Source: Micropruina glycogenica
GTDB taxonomy: Bacteria; Actinomycetota; Actinomycetes; Propionibacteriales; Propionibacteriaceae
Assembly (NCBI RefSeq): GCF_900289045.1
Contig: NZ_LT985188.1
Coordinates: 3,162,001 to 3,226,000, forward strand
DNA length: 64,000 nt
Direction of reading: 5' to 3'
The notes beneath the pieces are model-generated. The model saw only the letters and a program-made list of their open reading frames with translations. It did no database searches and was not told the DNA's origin. The position numbers and the translations under genes were made by a program. Positions 12,152 through 18,084 of the stretch are shown in pieces; within the stretch, counting starts at the first letter, position 1; each line of letters starts with the position of its first letter.

Positions 12152-12330
12152 GCGGTGACAGTACCCGCGCGGTGCGTCCACAGGTGTGGGTAAGCCTGTG
12201 GAGAACTACACGGCTGTAATCTCGGGCGCGCCCGCTCGGCGTCAGGCGGTAGCTAAGACTGCGACCCAACGAAGACCTGGGTGCTCGTTCAGTGCGAAAG
12301 CTCAATGTCATGTCGGTAATCGAGACGCTT

Positions 12331-13401
12331 CTATGTCTTGTCAAGGGTGGTCGTGTTGAGGTGTCGGAAGATTTGGCGGGCGATGTAGCGCTTGAGGCAG
12401 CGTCGGATTCGGGGTTTGGTTTGGCCTTGCTGTTTGCGTTTCTTGACGTAGGCCTTGGTGGTTTCGTCGTGTCGCATGCGGGTGTTCGCGATGGAGTTCA
12501 GGGCTGAGTTGAGTTGTCGGTCGCCGGTGCGGTTGAGGCGATGATCCTTGGAGTTGCCCGAGGAGATCTCCAGGGGGCAGACGCCGCCGATCTTGGCGAA
12601 GCCGGCTTCGTCATGGATGCGGCCGGGGTGAGACCAGACGGCGAGCACAATGGCGGCGTTGATGGGTCCGAGGCCGGGCAGGTCGAGCAGGGTTGGTTCG
12701 AGTTCACGCACGAGGGCGTTGATGGCTTTCTCGTTGCTGTCGAGGTCGGCGTCCAGGGTGTGGATGCGGGTGGCGAGGCGGTGCGCTTCGGTGCGGGCGA
12801 TCCGGGCCAGGGTGGTGTCGGTGGGCCGCTTGCGCCAGCCCGCAATGAGGCTGATGTGGACCTTGTTGATTCCCTTGCGGGCATCGATGTCGAGGTTGTG
12901 GGTGCGTAGCAGCGCGGTGAGCTGGTTCTTGGAACGGGTCCGGTCGCGTCGCATGCTGTCGCGGGCGGTGAGCAGGATCTGCAGCGCGGCACGGGTATGG
13001 CCGGCGCGTCGGTCGGCGAGCCGTTCGCTGTCCTTGGGTAACGCGCCGCGGGCAGCGACCAGGGCATCGATGTGGTCGTTCTTGCCGCTGCCACGAGCCC
13101 GTTTCGGCGAGGGTGCGTCGACGACCCGGTAACCGCGTGCGGCGAGCAGCTCGGCTGCCTGGGCGCCGTAACTGCCGGTGCCTTCCATGCTGATCAGCAC
13201 CTGGTCGACAGCTGGGTTGTCGTCAACACTGGTGCGGCGGCTGATCCAATCCACGGCCCGCAACAAGCCCGCGGCATGGGTGGGGAACTTCCCGTGGGTG
13301 ATCTGGCCGCCGCTACGGGTCTCCACGATCGCGTAATGATGAGTGGCGGCGTGGGTGTCCACACCCACCACATAGGTGTAGGTATCTGCAACGATGGCCA
13401 T
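12331..13401 (-). CDS. IS110 family transposase (DEDD recombinase)
   Basis: 356 residues from the ATG at 13401, which has an AGGAGG site. The N-terminal RuvC-like domain carries D15 (VVGVDTHAATHH), E73 (SMEGTGSYG), and D109 and D112 (KNDHIDA), the DEDD set of the family. The C-terminal Tnp2 domain has the helix-hairpin-like LPGLGPINAAIVLAVWS and the reactive serine region EISSGNSK (S280/S281). All key residues are present and the frame is intact, so the enzyme may be active. It marks the left end of the accessory island. Confidence 0.95.
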   Translation of the reverse strand: MAIVADTYTYVVGVDTHAATHHYAIVETRSGGQITHGKFPTHAAGLLRAVDWISRRTSVDDNPAVDQVLISMEGTGSYGAQAAELLAARGYRVVDAPSPKRARGSGKNDHIDALVAARGALPKDSERLADRRAGHTRAALQILLTARDSMRRDRTRSKNQLTALLRTHNLDIDARKGINKVHISLIAGWRKRPTDTTLARIARTEAHRLATRIHTLDADLDSNEKAINALVRELEPTLLDLPGLGPINAAIVLAVWSHPGRIHDEAGFAKIGGVCPLEISSGNSKDHRLNRTGDRQLNSALNSIANTRMRHDETTKAYVKKRKQQGQTKPRIRRCLKRYIARQIFRHLNTTTLDKT

Positions 13402-13792
13402 CGGTGTCTGAGCCTCCTGTTTTCGGGATGTTGGGCATCGAGCCGGTCGAACCGGCGCGGCCATCCCGGGGAAAGAGTCACCCGTGGCGTTACTGTGATC
13501 GGTCACCCCGCCAAAGCGGTGGGACGGGCTTCTATCAGGCCAACGAGTGGGCCGGGATGGTCGGCCGGTTCTCCGTGCACGAGCCGGACAGATCTCGACC
13601 AAGACACCCCGCACAATTGCGGACGGTCAGCTTGTCGAAGGGTCACGACCCGCACACGAACAACCGGTCCCACCACCCTGCCAGCTAGCCCCAGGCCAGC
13701 CACCACCAACTCTCACAGCTTGTCGAGTCCGTCCGGTCATGCCGATGATCGAGTCCGTCTGACGGCGCCTCGCGACCTCGGATTCCGCCTTG
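13402..13792 (-). ncRNA. Candidate bridge-RNA region of the IS110 element
   Basis: No gene lies in this 391-bp stretch upstream of the transposase. IS110 recombinases use a structured guide (bridge) RNA encoded in this position. Small GC-rich hairpins are visible: CCGGT-CGA-ACCGG at 13443-13455, CCGC-CAAA-GCGG at 13508-13519 and CCGCA-CAAT-TGCGG at 13609-13622. Partial family-B repeats occur near 13629 and 13719. The RNA limits and target/donor loops are not assigned; this is inference from family architecture. Confidence 0.5.
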
Positions 13793-14755
13793 TTACGCGC
13801 TGTCGGGGTCCACGAGCGAATCGCGCATGATGACTATCGGCTTCGCCTTGCCCGCCTTGCTTGCCGAGGTCTCTGGCGGAAGCGCACGAACGGGCATGAG
13901 GTAGACCCGAACCCCAGAGAGATCGAGGTAGCGAGGTGCGCTCTCGGGCCCGTCGCTCGGGAGGTTCAACGGCCTGCCCGAAAGGTTCATGATTACCAGA
14001 TACGCGCTGTTCTTGCCGTAGTCCTGAGCATAGAGAACGGCTTGATGCAGTCCACCGGCAATGCCTCGCTTGTCACCTGTGAACAGCTTCACTTCACAGA
14101 TTAGGGGGTCTTCGGTGTCCAGATCAGTCAGCACATCTGAGAGGCCAGATGCACTCTTGGCTTGGCTGTAGGGCATGTTGATCCCTTCTCGGAAGAGGAA
14201 CCGCCGCAGGGCTTGGTCGTAGACCCTCTCGCCGTTTGCAGTGTCAGCCTGATAGGCAATGTACAAGTCTTCACGAACGAACCACTCAACGTACCGAACG
14301 AAGCGATCGAGTATATACAGGACACTGCTTTCACCCGCCACGTGGTCAATGAGATAGTCGAAGAAGGGTTGATAGATCCGCTCGACCAGTTCGCGTGCGG
14401 AGTCATTCAGGTTGTTGCTGGAACTCAAACCATGCCCAAAACTCAGGACACCCTGTTGGCCCTGAGGGTCATCGGCGACGGCGTTGATCACGGCCCATGC
14501 CAGCGTCGCTCGCCCTGCCTCAGTTCTAGAGTGCCAGTTGAACCCGTAGTGGCCATAAAACGACTTCATCCAAGTATCGATGTCCAACTCCGGCTCGACT
14601 CTCGCCGCGTCCTCTACCAACGAAATGAGCTTGGCCTGCTTGCTTAACCATTCCCGAAACAGCGCCGTTTCGTGACTCAAGGTCTCGAAGCCTTGGACCA
14701 GGCATCGACGGTACCGCTCGCGCAAGGCAACCTGCAGGTCCTGCTCAGTCCGCAT
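13793..14755 (-). CDS. PD-(D/E)XK nuclease-like protein of a putative defence island
   Basis: 320 residues with two parts. Residues 1-175 are helical and unrecognised. Residues 180-300 contain a PD-(D/E)XK core: D207 in GLSDVLTDL, E221 and K223 in LICEVKLF, then Q238 in LHQAVLYAQDYG, followed by a beta strand. That spacing is typical of restriction-like endonucleases. The start overlaps the stop of the zinc-ribbon gene (TGATG), implying co-translation. Base composition is lower in GC than the surrounding core genes, suggesting transfer. DNA cleavage in defence is inferred from context. Confidence 0.7.
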   Translation of the reverse strand: MRTEQDLQVALRERYRRCLVQGFETLSHETALFREWLSKQAKLISLVEDAARVEPELDIDTWMKSFYGHYGFNWHSRTEAGRATLAWAVINAVADDPQGQQGVLSFGHGLSSSNNLNDSARELVERIYQPFFDYLIDHVAGESSVLYILDRFVRYVEWFVREDLYIAYQADTANGERVYDQALRRFLFREGINMPYSQAKSASGLSDVLTDLDTEDPLICEVKLFTGDKRGIAGGLHQAVLYAQDYGKNSAYLVIMNLSGRPLNLPSDGPESAPRYLDLSGVRVYLMPVRALPPETSASKAGKAKPIVIMRDSLVDPDSA

Positions 14756-15164: not shown

Positions 15165-17417
15165 TTACATCCCCTTCAACAGGGGGCTGGGGCCCGACGG
15201 TCGCAACACTCTCCAGGAACCGCGCCCTGTAGAGAACGAGAGCTTCAGGTGATCGATAACGGCTTGCTCCTCGCAATTCGGCAGAACCGCTGTGAGACGA
15301 GCGGTGGCTGGAGCATTCAGCTCGGTGTCTAGCTTCACGCGGGCGCTGCCCTCCTGATTAATGCTGCTCAATGAAGCCACCGGCTCGTCGAGTTCCAACC
15401 TCACCTCATCGGCCGTCGCGTGGACGTCCCGGACGCGGGCGTGGCAGTGGCTTCCCCAACTCACGACGAGCGGATCAGACGCCGCAACCGATTGCAGGGA
15501 GTTCAGGTTTCTTCTCGACATTCCCCGAACAATCAGCTCACACAGGTCCTGAACCGGCGATTCGCTGACCTCTGGCACAACCTTGATGCGATCCGCCGAA
15601 ACACCGATGGCCCTTAGCCGGTCAATCACTGGCCCGGGGTTGAGATCGGCGATCACGACCGTGGAGTTGGTCGTTCCAATAGCTGACCGGAGCATCGTGC
15701 CGGTCGTAGTATCCGTTGCCGGTAGCGAGTACCCCAACAAAAACACATGGGACGCGGCCTCGAGGCGCTGACGCGCCTGCTGCCAAAACTCCCGAAGCTG
15801 GGGGGAGCCATAGAACGGTGACTTTGTTGCCGTCGGCGGCACGAGGAAGGGCACGCGTCCGGGTAGCTCTCGTTGGCGATCACCTTCCTCGTAGACGGCC
15901 GGGCGAAGCCAACTCCCCGGTAGCCCACGCTTCGCAACAGTTGCCCCCGTCGAATCCCCTGGGCTCCAGTACCAGTTGAGCGACCCATGCAGCTTCAACA
16001 GTCTCATGGTCTCACGGCGCGTGGCGGCAAGTCGGGCCGGACCCGGTGGCCATGCTGGAACTCCACCTGTGAGTTCGTCCCAGAAGAACGGGTCGAAGTA
16101 CCCCTCCCCGTGCGCATCGTCAAGCGGCCCGAGAGGCGAGGCAACCAAGCACTCGAGCAAGGTGTCGTAGTTGAATGTCACCACGCCCGCCTTAAGTGTG
16201 TGGGCCACCACAATCAACCCCACCAGCCATGGCGGGGGGCCGCTGGCCAGCACCTCGTGTTGGCGTGCGCCGAGAATCGTTCCTATCGCGGAGCTGAACC
16301 GCTCGAACAGAGCATGATTCTCGCCGTTCTCAGCGGAGTCTAGAAACGGTTGATCCGCAGCGAGTGCAGAAAGATAGGTCTCGAAGAAACCGCCGGAGAA
16401 CTCATTCGGTCCGTCGGACGGAAGATGCTGCCTGAGTAGTGGAAGGCATAGGTTCCCAAGCTCATCGGTCAACGGCATGCGGTGATCGACTGCGCGTGAG
16501 AACCCTGCGCCGAGGACGAAAGTGGTCGGGCCCGCCGCCGGGTCAAATGAGCGCTCGTCCCACGCATTCAGACTAGGTGCAGTCATCTTGCGGCCAAGCA
16601 TCGCACGTGCCGGGCCATGGTCCGCCCGAATACTCCGACATCCGATCATGCCGCCGACAGAGACGCATTCCGTGAGTGGTCGGGATCTTGTGGTGCTCGG
16701 GGGGATGGCGCCACGAGCGAGGCGGAAGCCCAGGTCATCGAACTTGGCCGTGGGGTTGGTCTTGCGGCGGACGCCAGCGCGGCAGCTCCACTCTGGGTCG
16801 CTCCATCCACCACCACGGATGATGCGGTATGAACCGTAGACCGCCGTGTCGTACAAGTCCCAGCACCATTCCCACACCCCGCCCAGCATGTCGAACAACC
16901 CCCACGCATTCGGCTCCTTCATCCGCACGCGGTGGATGCTCCCGCCAGAGTTGCCCGCGTACCAAGCGATGTCGTCCAGGTCGCCGTAGCGGGCGCCACT
17001 GCTACCGGCACGGCAGGCGACCTGCCACTCGGCATCGGTGGGAAGACGGTAACCATCAGCCGCGCGGCGCCAGACGACGACCCAGTCGTCGATCTCCGGC
17101 TCGCTGTGCGCCCGCCACTGCGACGGCTCGGGGACGACACGCTGAGAGACCTCGTAGACCGGCGTGAGTCCCTCCCGAACGGACAGCGCATTGCAGAACA
17201 GGACCGCGTCACGCCAGCTCACGTCCGTCTTCGGAAGGTCCGCCTCTGCCAGGTCATTCGGGGTGCGGTGAACCTCGTTCCACAGGCCGCACGTGACCAC
17301 GGTGGCTGACAGTCTGAAGGGCTCGACACGTACCGTCCAGGACAGGTCCGTGCGACGGTCCACCACCGTCTCGTCCACCGCGCCCTGCGGCAGGACTTCG
17401 ACCAGATTCACGCTCAT
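15165..17417 (-). CDS. Formylglycine-generating-enzyme-like / SIR2-like fusion protein
   Basis: 750 residues from ATG 17417. Residues 1-235 are an FGE-sulfatase (SUMF1) domain: RLPTDAEWQVACRAG, WGLFDMLGGVWEWCWD, RIIRGGGW and DLGFRLAR. The first of the two catalytic cysteines of true FGE is missing (only C212 near the end), so it is probably a binding domain. Residues 295-640 are SIR2-like: GAGFS 303-307, TFNYD 414-418, LHGSLNW with H477, and GYSLPATD 562-569. A ~110-residue C-terminal domain is unrecognised. SIR2-like domains in defence proteins hydrolyse NAD+ on phage sensing. A family link to defence is known; the role here is inferred. The 236-285 linker could hide an old gene boundary. 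Confidence 0.8.
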   Translation of the reverse strand: MSVNLVEVLPQGAVDETVVDRRTDLSWTVRVEPFRLSATVVTCGLWNEVHRTPNDLAEADLPKTDVSWRDAVLFCNALSVREGLTPVYEVSQRVVPEPSQWRAHSEPEIDDWVVVWRRAADGYRLPTDAEWQVACRAGSSGARYGDLDDIAWYAGNSGGSIHRVRMKEPNAWGLFDMLGGVWEWCWDLYDTAVYGSYRIIRGGGWSDPEWSCRAGVRRKTNPTAKFDDLGFRLARGAIPPSTTRSRPLTECVSVGGMIGCRSIRADHGPARAMLGRKMTAPSLNAWDERSFDPAAGPTTFVLGAGFSRAVDHRMPLTDELGNLCLPLLRQHLPSDGPNEFSGGFFETYLSALAADQPFLDSAENGENHALFERFSSAIGTILGARQHEVLASGPPPWLVGLIVVAHTLKAGVVTFNYDTLLECLVASPLGPLDDAHGEGYFDPFFWDELTGGVPAWPPGPARLAATRRETMRLLKLHGSLNWYWSPGDSTGATVAKRGLPGSWLRPAVYEEGDRQRELPGRVPFLVPPTATKSPFYGSPQLREFWQQARQRLEAASHVFLLGYSLPATDTTTGTMLRSAIGTTNSTVVIADLNPGPVIDRLRAIGVSADRIKVVPEVSESPVQDLCELIVRGMSRRNLNSLQSVAASDPLVVSWGSHCHARVRDVHATADEVRLELDEPVASLSSINQEGSARVKLDTELNAPATARLTAVLPNCEEQAVIDHLKLSFSTGRGSWRVLRPSGPSPLLKGM

Positions 17418-17499
17418 GCCACCCATTCTTGATGGTCGCACTACCGAGAACGACCACGAGTTCTCTGAACATCCGCCTATGCCGCAGGTAGTTGGATGT

Positions 17500-17793
17500 T
17501 CAGACGGCTTCGAGTGGTTCGATTCGGTCGAGGCTGTTGCCGAGGTGGTCCTTTTCGACTTCGAGGTCGTAGCGGATCTGGAGGTTGAGCCAGAACCGGT
17601 CGGTGGTGCCGAAGTAGCGGGCGAGCCGTAGTGCGGTGTCGGCCGTGATGCGGCGCTTGCCGTGGACGATCTCGTTGATGCGACGTGGCGGCACGCCGAT
17701 TGCGACGGCGAGCCGGTTCTGGCTGACTGCGAGCGGCTCGAGGAACTCCTCCATCAGGATTTCGCCGGGGTGGATGGGTGTAGTGGTCGTCAT
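17500..17793 (-). CDS. higA: HigA-type antitoxin
   Basis: 97 residues, an XRE-type helix-turn-helix protein of the HigA/VapI family: HPGEILMEEFLEPLAVSQNR at the N-terminus, then PPRRINEIVHGKRRITADTA, and DRFWLNLQIRYDLEVEK. It neutralises the adjacent HigB-like toxin and normally represses the operon with it. Toxin-first gene order (HigB at 17803-18084, then HigA 9 nt later) is the classic higBA arrangement. Confidence 0.9.
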   Translation of the reverse strand: MTTTTPIHPGEILMEEFLEPLAVSQNRLAVAIGVPPRRINEIVHGKRRITADTALRLARYFGTTDRFWLNLQIRYDLEVEKDHLGNSLDRIEPLEAV

Positions 17794-17802
17794 GGCACCT
17801 CC

Positions 17803-18084
17803 TCAGTGGTAGTCGACGATCTCGACGTCGATCGGTCCGGCGTCGGTCCAGGTGAAGCAGATCCTCCACTGCTGGTTGATCCGGATGCTGTGCTGGCCGG
17901 CCCGGTCTCCCCGGAGTTCTTCGAGCCGGTTGCCCGGTGGCACGCGCAGGTCGTCCAGGGTCTCAGCGGCATCCAGCATCACCAGCTTCCGCAGGGCGGC
18001 TCGTTCGATGCGTGGGTCGATGGTCTTGACCCGTTGGCGTGACCAGAGCCGCTCGGTTGCCGAGTCGCGAAACGACCTGATCAC
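17803..18084 (-). CDS. higB: HigB/RelE-type toxin
   Basis: 93 residues beginning IRSFRDSATERLWSRQRVKT and ending with RGDRAGQHSIRINQQWRICFTW...VEIVDYH, the standard plasmid-maintenance-killer (HigB) pattern with conserved Arg, Trp and terminal His. Such toxins cleave mRNA on the ribosome. The GTG start at 18084 is preceded by TATAGT (complement of 18091-18096) with a 6-nt gap, so the transcript is probably leaderless. Its 3' neighbour is HigA. Its start overlaps the end of the alcohol dehydrogenase frame. Confidence 0.9.
   Translation of the reverse strand: MIRSFRDSATERLWSRQRVKTIDPRIERAALRKLVMLDAAETLDDLRVPPGNRLEELRGDRAGQHSIRINQQWRICFTWTDAGPIDVEIVDYH

What the first reader, a model, noticed from the sequence alone, without database searches (positions are those of the whole stretch)
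13402..13792. Likely bridge RNA of an intact IS110 element
The transposase keeps all DEDD residues and the reactive Ser, and the 391 bp upstream is gene-free and hairpin-rich, the position of the guide RNA in IS110-group elements. If active, it is a programmable recombinase with its own guide in a high-GC host.
Basis: inference. Interest (0 to 1): 0.5.

Follow-up and report, generated by a model that had tools for sequence, protein, structure and literature searches.

The report
IS110 element with repeat-aimed bridge RNA
This is a complete jumping gene of the IS110 kind that appears to carry its own guide RNA, aimed at a short repeat found a few hundred times in its host's chromosome; it is a well-supported new example of a known type rather than a new type of system.

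Summary
The interval lies directly upstream of an intact IS110 recombinase gene (window 12331-13401, minus strand), but its last 75 bp (13718-13792) are flank. Twelve near-identical copies in the same genome fix the element at 12324-13717 (1394 bp). A covariance model built from 24 orthologues without the window finds the window RNA at 89.2 bits (next hit 9.1). The RNA has a 5' hairpin, target-binding loop and donor-binding loop, in the IS621 order. Across 25 elements both target guides match their own insertion flanks far better than other elements' flanks (0 of 20,000 permutations), with signal at one alignment position each; donor guides covary with the element ends. The majority target, TCTCGACAAGCTCGACCA, occurs 226 times (at most 1 mismatch) in the 3.84 Mb genome, reversed control 0. 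A second, distantly related IS110 of this genome and a recombinase-less target loop carry guides to the same repeat, cut 4 nt away. Some orthologues fit poorly, and transcription and activity are inferred, not shown. New member of a known kind.

The parts
12324..13717 (-). complete IS110-family element (1394 bp between the two inferred cut points, read from the minus strand)
   Evidence: 12 copies in the same genome share exactly this stretch; outside it only the target is shared
12331..13401 (-). IS110 recombinase CDS, 356 aa plus stop; AGGAGG upstream of the ATG
12324..12330 (-). short right end (RE) between stop codon and cut; ...ATAGAAGCGTC is the left donor sequence; TTGAC lies 20 nt before the core C
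   Evidence: same TTGAC in 31 of 31 orthologous copies listed
13402..13717 (-). left end (LE), the non-coding region that encodes the predicted bridge RNA
   Evidence: alignment of 25 LEs; held-out covariance model match 13484-13653, 89.2 bits
13681..13703 (-). 5' hairpin of the bridge RNA
   Evidence: helices 1 and 2; coordinates
13583..13651 (-). target-binding loop (hairpin with internal loop)
   Evidence: helices 3 and 4; coordinates
13629..13639 (-). left target guide (LTG) TTCGACAAGCT; contains the left target half TCGACAAGC
   Evidence: 9 of 9 in the window copy; own-versus-other tests
13594..13600 (-). right target guide (RTG) GGTCGAG; reverse complement of C|TCGACC
   Evidence: 7 of 7 against the target of 11 of 12 copies; 5 of 7, or 7 of 7 counting two G-T wobbles, against the window copy's own right flank
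13487..13541 (-). donor-binding loop
   Evidence: helix 5; coordinates
13523..13533 (-). left donor guide (LDG) AGAAGCCCGTC, resembles the RE AGAAGCGTC
13493..13498 (-). right donor guide (RDG) TCACAG, reverse complement of the core and LE start CTGTGA

Best explanation
A complete, recently mobile IS110-group insertion sequence whose long left non-coding end encodes a bridge RNA. Inferred mechanism, by analogy to IS621: the element excises as a circle and recombines at a core base C. Joining of RE and LE brings a TTGAC -35-like box next to the LE, which could drive bridge RNA transcription. [quoted passage not shown] The donor-binding loop pairs LDG and RDG with the RE-LE junction ATAGAAGCGTC|TGTGA. 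The DEDD/Ser recombinase then exchanges strands and inserts the circle without target duplication. Shown here: element ends, target, conservation of the RNA structure, guide-target and guide-donor correspondence, intact catalytic residues. Inferred: transcription, RNP formation, circle, cut position, strand exchange.
For: 12 copies define the ends and a common rejoined target. Held-out covariance model: 89.2 bits, E 1e-17 at 13484-13653, next window hit 9.1 bits; 12 of 12 copies found genome-wide. Structure: 94.9% of 631 cells paired; 15 of 26 pairs with changes on both sides; 0 of 500 shuffles reach any of five measures; slid versions at most 48.1% paired. Target guides, 25 elements: LTG own match 7.36 of 10 against 3.65 for others' targets, RTG 5.56 of 7 against 2.62; 0 of 20,000 permutations each; scanning the whole alignment, the own-minus-other difference is 3.71 and 2.94 at these starts and at most 0.51 and 0.53 elsewhere; subsets made non-redundant by guide (14 and 9 elements) also 0 of 20,000. 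Donor guides, 25 elements: left 6 of 6 in 24, right 6 of 6 in 22; 0 of 20,000 permutations each, with matched changes such as L091 (AAAAGA/AAAAGA, TTAAAG/TTAAAG). Majority target: 226 sites at most 1 mismatch, reversed control 0. Recombinase family and residues.
Against: No RNA, protein or recombination data. Rfam 15 has no match. The window copy's own right flank fits the RTG at only 5 of 7 by Watson-Crick pairing. Guide fit is poor in some orthologues even with a 2-nt shift: left L111 3, L112 4, and L056, L078, L083, L090 6 of 9; right L111 3, L056 and L093 4 of 7. The own target is the (tied) best in only 16 of 25 left and 21 of 25 right (some left cases are off by one alignment column). 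An unrestricted best-match search put the right guide outside positions 102-123 of the RNA in 17 of 32 elements, as 5-8 nt matches also arise by chance; the fixed-column tests are the stronger ones. The left core base is not C in L062 and L111. The single-sequence minimum-energy fold lacks the donor-loop stem. No -10 box of the supposed circle promoter was established.
Confidence: 0.95

Rival explanations
1. The upstream region is only a long leader or DNA-level recombinase binding site; target choice is by protein-DNA recognition, and the RNA-like hairpins are incidental.
For: Many characterised IS elements recognise their ends through protein-DNA contacts (PMC11208160, section 4); no transcript was shown here.
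Against: Changes on both sides in 15 of 26 pairs and, at fixed loop positions, guide sequences that change together with the insertion flanks of the same element are not expected of a leader or a protein binding site.
Confidence: 0.03
2. The resemblance between the LE and the target is a by-product of insertion into a repeat (captured repeat DNA), not a guide.
For: The target is an abundant repeat (226 sites), so a match within the LE of one element could come from capture.
Against: Orthologues with unrelated targets carry their own target sequence at the same two alignment positions, on the two sides of one hairpin and in opposite strand senses; 0 of 20,000 permutations, and the scan along the alignment shows at most 0.53 difference elsewhere.
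Confidence: 0.01
3. The element is real but dead: the 12 copies were spread by an earlier burst and the RNA or protein no longer works.
For: No activity data; the window copy sits in a slightly divergent target.
Against: 12 copies differ at one base in one copy within the element; all 12 carry an open 356-aa frame without stops, 11 with the same top score and one slightly lower; catalytic residues are kept.
Confidence: 0.1

Closest known systems
IS621 and its bridge RNA (IS110 group; PMC11208160: abstract, sections 4, 5, 6, 12 and passages; PMC11208158: passages)
   Same: Recombinase with DEDD RuvC-like and Ser-containing Tnp domains; RNA encoded in the left end; 5' stem-loop, then target loop, then donor loop; 5' side of each loop reads the bottom strand, 3' side the top strand; -35-like box in the RE; insertion into a repetitive host sequence (REP elements are named for IS110 elements in section 5).
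   Different: Recombinase only remotely similar (no single-sequence hit in the PDB copy; profile hit to 8wt6 E 2.2e-22). RTG about 7 nt (native IS621 RTG 4 bp). The shared base at the cut is C alone, where IS621 has CT with T nearly invariant.
ISEc21 seekRNA (IS110 type; PMC11187229: abstract, sections 12 and 13)
   Same: Upstream non-coding region, bottom-strand match 5' of top-strand match, promoter formed at the circle junction, no target duplication.
   Different: Its target is a conserved transposase codon region of certain IS3-family members, not a host repeat; its RNA (74-nt short form) was measured, nothing was measured here.
IS elements that insert into REP sequences, such as ISPpu9, ISPpu10, ISPa11 (PMC1525189: abstract only)
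   Same: Insertion into an abundant short interspersed host repeat.
   Different: Different hosts and repeats; the abstract mentions no guide RNA.

Membership tests
[quoted passage not shown]
IS110 family (IS110 group) | RNA-coding long left end and short right end (IS1111: the reverse) | tested here: met
   LE 316 bp, 7 bp between stop and cut; RNA model match in the LE
IS110 family (IS110 group) | Scarless, sequence-specific insertion around a short core | tested here: met
   12 rejoined targets share CTCGACAAGC|TCGA, element length 1394 in all 12; empty sites exist as 226 uninterrupted repeats
IS110 family (IS110 group) | No long terminal inverted repeats | not tested
   no dedicated search was run
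Bridge RNA | Conserved structure with two internal loops | tested here: met
Bridge RNA | Loop 1 guides match left and right target on opposite strands | tested here: met
   poor in a minority of orthologues
Bridge RNA | Loop 2 guides match RE and LE donor ends | tested here: met
   24 and 22 of 25 at 6 of 6
Bridge RNA | Transcribed and bound by the recombinase | not testable with these tools
   needs RNA-seq and a binding assay
Bridge RNA | Promoter reconstituted across the RE-LE junction | tested here: inconclusive
   TTGAC 19-23 nt before the core in 31 of 31 orthologous copies listed; no -10 box established
IS621-type CT core | CT dinucleotide shared by target and donor | tested here: not met
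   across orthologues only C is shared; the base after C on the target side is T, C, G or A. The window element itself reads CT on both sides

The most novel reading that the evidence does not exclude
This genome holds at least three separately acquired bridge-RNA guides against the same repeat: the window element, a distantly related three-copy IS110 (L107 type, cut 4 nt upstream), and a recombinase-less target loop at G000:C1:2890200-2890288. The boldest reading is that the last is a functional, non-autonomous, trans-acting guide (or mini-element) served by the other recombinases, so that repeat and guides form a small network that keeps IS110 elements in sites the host tolerates.
Probability: 0.07. 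Interest if true: 0.6.

Novelty: new member of a known kind. Interest (0 to 1): 0.36.

Why it matters
It gives a complete, 12-copy, probably recently active bridge recombinase with ends, core, both target guides and both donor guides assigned, which is what is needed to test it as a programmable recombinase remote from IS621. The single shared core base C, the roughly 7-nt right guide and the correlated guide-target changes across 25 elements make the rules of this subgroup testable. Two distantly related IS110s aimed at one repeat in one genome suggest that guides adapt to whatever repeat is abundant in the host.

Tried and rejected
Rfam 15 found nothing, with gathering scores on the window or with E <= 1 on 13300-13800, so an own model was built. 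The scan of genome contigs gave only two remote loci, not used. The plasmid collection gave partial matches of at most 26% of the query, not used. Single-sequence PDB search gave nothing; the profile search did. First idea rejected: that the element begins at CTCGACAAGC. All 12 copies share that string, but so do the uninterrupted repeats, and orthologues share only C|TGTRA or close variants, so it is target. Second idea rejected: a CT core as in IS621. The open-frame measure around 20 intact repeats is uninformative and not used. The RNAalifold helix pairing columns 1-6 with 260-265 was left out of the structure count because it coincides with RDG pairing to the LE start as DNA. Whether the window copy's divergent right flank is the original target or a later change was not resolved. 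The stretch used for the held-out model was cut at alignment columns chosen with the window in view, although the window's letters were not in the model. The columns of the guide tests were chosen after inspection; the scan along the alignment makes no such choice.

Rows: 60 loci were fetched (56 of other genomes, 4 of the own genome's other IS110s), only part of the matches. 31 of the 60, plus the window, were anchored at both ends. The other 29 were 22 further copies of elements already held and seven without a clear end (L055, L059, L060, L073, L074, L104, L110). Of the 32, 25 went into the alignment and guide tests; second copies L057, L068, L072, L079 and the distant L097, L100, L107 were left out. 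Of 11 multi-copy sets, L075-L077 were alike over the whole fetched stretch and L104-L106 on the left, and gave no ends there.

Full report
Observation. The recombinase ORF (12331-13401, minus strand) and the upstream non-coding stretch are present as described. The family assignment is firm (Pfam; NCBIfam RNA-guided IS110 transposase above cut-off). D15, E73, D109, D112 and S281 are invariant in the 24 aligned sequences, and the profile aligns with IS621 (8wt6) in both domains. PMC11208158 (passages) reports that mutating D11, E60, D102, D105 or S241 abolishes IS621 recombination.

Ends. The genome has 12 copies. Fetched with flanks and aligned, they vary within the element at one base in one copy. 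Rejoined targets read TCTCGACAAGC|TCGACCA in 11 of 12 copies; from position -10 to +7 all 12 agree except at +5 and +6 in the window copy, and the element is 1394 bp in all 12. In the window it is 12324-13717, so 13718-13792 of the finding is flank.

Target. The rejoined 18-mer occurs 226 times (122 forward, 104 reverse, at most 1 mismatch) in the 3.84 Mb genome; the pattern read backwards 0 times. Of 37 genomes searched, the own included, 10 have a match: 226, 9, 119, 11, 24 and 335 in the six of the genus, and 3, 1, 4 and 4 in four others; the backwards control gives one hit in each of four genomes. So the target is a short interspersed repeat largely confined to this genus within this sample, and very unevenly abundant there. 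Among 20 intact sites read with 200 bp on each side, 15 have a further direct copy and 5 an inverted copy at 4 mismatches or fewer; 0 of 2000 shuffled stretches have such an inverted copy. The rejoined target of the closest orthologue (L061) occurs 10 times in its own genome at 1 mismatch or fewer, control 0.

Orthologues. Relatives were found in searches of 96, 394 and 391 genomes (38, 8 and 20 genomes with a match, the last two at E <= 1e-70). Those in the protein alignment are 33-61% identical to the window protein. Most multi-copy sets fix their ends without reference to any guide, and single copies were anchored by the motifs these share: LE usually begins C|TGTRA, RE usually ends ATAGRAGMRT|C.

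RNA structure. 25 LEs were aligned. A structure of 26 pairs (5' hairpin, target loop with outer and inner stem, donor-loop stem) has 94.9% of 631 cells paired and 15 pairs with changes on both sides. None of 500 shuffles reaches any of the five measures, and slid versions reach at most 48.1%. The shuffles do not keep relatedness, and the structure came from this same alignment, which favours it. A model built from the 24 sequences other than the window finds the window at 13484-13653 with 89.2 bits, E 1e-17, the next at 9.1 bits. In the whole genome it finds 14 places at E <= 0.001: the 12 copies, L110 and an orphan. It did not report the L107-type copies there, though it scores 29.8 bits on L107 alone. 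The 235-nt window RNA folds with z -4.94, but its minimum-energy fold lacks the donor-loop stem.

Guides. At fixed alignment columns the 10-nt LTG matches its own left flank at 7.36 on average against 3.65 for other elements' flanks; the 7-nt RTG 5.56 against 2.62; 0 of 20,000 permutations in each case. Scanning the whole alignment gives own-minus-other differences of 3.71 and 2.94 at these starts and at most 0.51 and 0.53 elsewhere. Subsets made non-redundant by guide (14 and 9 elements) also give 0 of 20,000. Allowing a shift of up to 2 nt, 19 of 25 have at least 7 of 9 on the left and 22 of 25 at least 5 of 7 on the right; other elements' targets reach that in 32 and 74 of 600 cells. Below those marks are L056, L078, L083, L090, L111 and L112 on the left and L056, L093 and L111 on the right. 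A free best-match search without fixed columns placed the left guide at RNA positions 65-86 in 26 of 32 elements, but the right guide outside 102-123 in 17 of 32, as expected of such short matches. Donor guides match their own ends at 6 of 6 in 24 of 25 (left) and 22 of 25 (right), means 5.96 and 5.88 against permutation means 5.25 and 5.32, 0 of 20,000; L091 shows matched changes on both sides. For the window element the RTG fits the majority target 7 of 7 and its own right flank 5 of 7, or 7 of 7 if two G-T wobbles count.

Core. In IS621 the core is CT with T nearly invariant, and the top strand is cut just 3' of it. Here the base at that place is C on the right end of 31 of 31 anchored orthologous copies and on the left end of 28 of 31 as anchored (not L062, L111, L107; L107 reads C when its ends are re-read), while the bases before and after it vary. 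I read this as target NC, donor TC, cut after C. This rests on alignment only.

Same repeat, other guides. A three-copy IS110 of the same genome (L107-L109) is 36% identical to the window protein and pairs with L110 in the tree at 100/98 support, away from the window element, which pairs with L061 at 100/99. It is inserted in the same repeat 4 nt upstream, GGTCTCGAC|AAGCTCGACCA in 3 of 3 copies, with an LTG at 9 of 9 and an RTG at 5 of 7, or 7 of 7 with wobble, in a register set by analogy. Its guide covers another part of the repeat, so it is not simply the same inherited guide. The model also finds, at 41.3 bits, a target loop at G000:C1:2890200-2890288, where the recombinase search has no match; LTG 9 of 9 and RTG 6 of 7, lying between GGTCTCGAC and GACCAGCGG. 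Of 37 genomes it is found whole only here; three others give matches of 23-35 bases. A deletion remnant is the plain reading. Of six genomes of the genus, only this one and G002 have model matches, although G005 has the most repeats.

Known or new. Bridge RNAs of IS110 elements are established (PMC11208160: abstract, sections 4, 5, 6, 12 and passages; PMC11187229: abstract, sections 12 and 13), and so is insertion of IS elements into abundant REP repeats (PMC1525189: abstract). I file it as a new member of a known kind. Transcription, RNP formation and recombination are inferred.

Noticed in passing
L113:5001-5089 (-), G000:C1:2890200-2890288: Orphan target-binding loop without recombinase match or donor loop; its guides fit the same repeat and it lies between two repeat halves; remnant or mini-element.
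   Followed up: partly
L107, L108, L109 (G000:C1:302232, 1055172, 2280708): Second IS110 type, three copies, inserted into the same repeat 4 nt upstream of the window element's cut, with its own matching guides.
   Followed up: partly
L110 (G000:C1:220104-221111): Third IS110 type, one match, RNA model 55.1 bits; its target was not determined.
   Followed up: no
L058, L075, L080, L083: Orthologues share a left target AGCGGGWANNKC, in what looks (from recall) like an IS3-type transposase gene; guides follow the target differences in part, best on the right side (L075).
   Followed up: partly
L111, L112: Orthologues inserted in what looks (from recall) like the P-loop codons of an istB-type gene; their guide fit is poor in my register.
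   Followed up: no
L079: This copy sits directly behind what looks like the right end of another IS110 (left flank ends ...ATAGAAGCATC), a tandem insertion.
   Followed up: no
window 13793-14755 (-): 320-aa protein next to the element without Pfam, NCBIfam or PADLOC match; nuclease-like motif run by eye.
   Followed up: partly
window 15165-17441 (-): 758-aa open frame with an FGE-sulfatase domain and a weak SIR2-type stretch (PADLOC 4.1e-7); possibly two merged genes.
   Followed up: partly
window 17500-18084 (-): HigB-like toxin and helix-turn-helix partner by Pfam.
   Followed up: partly
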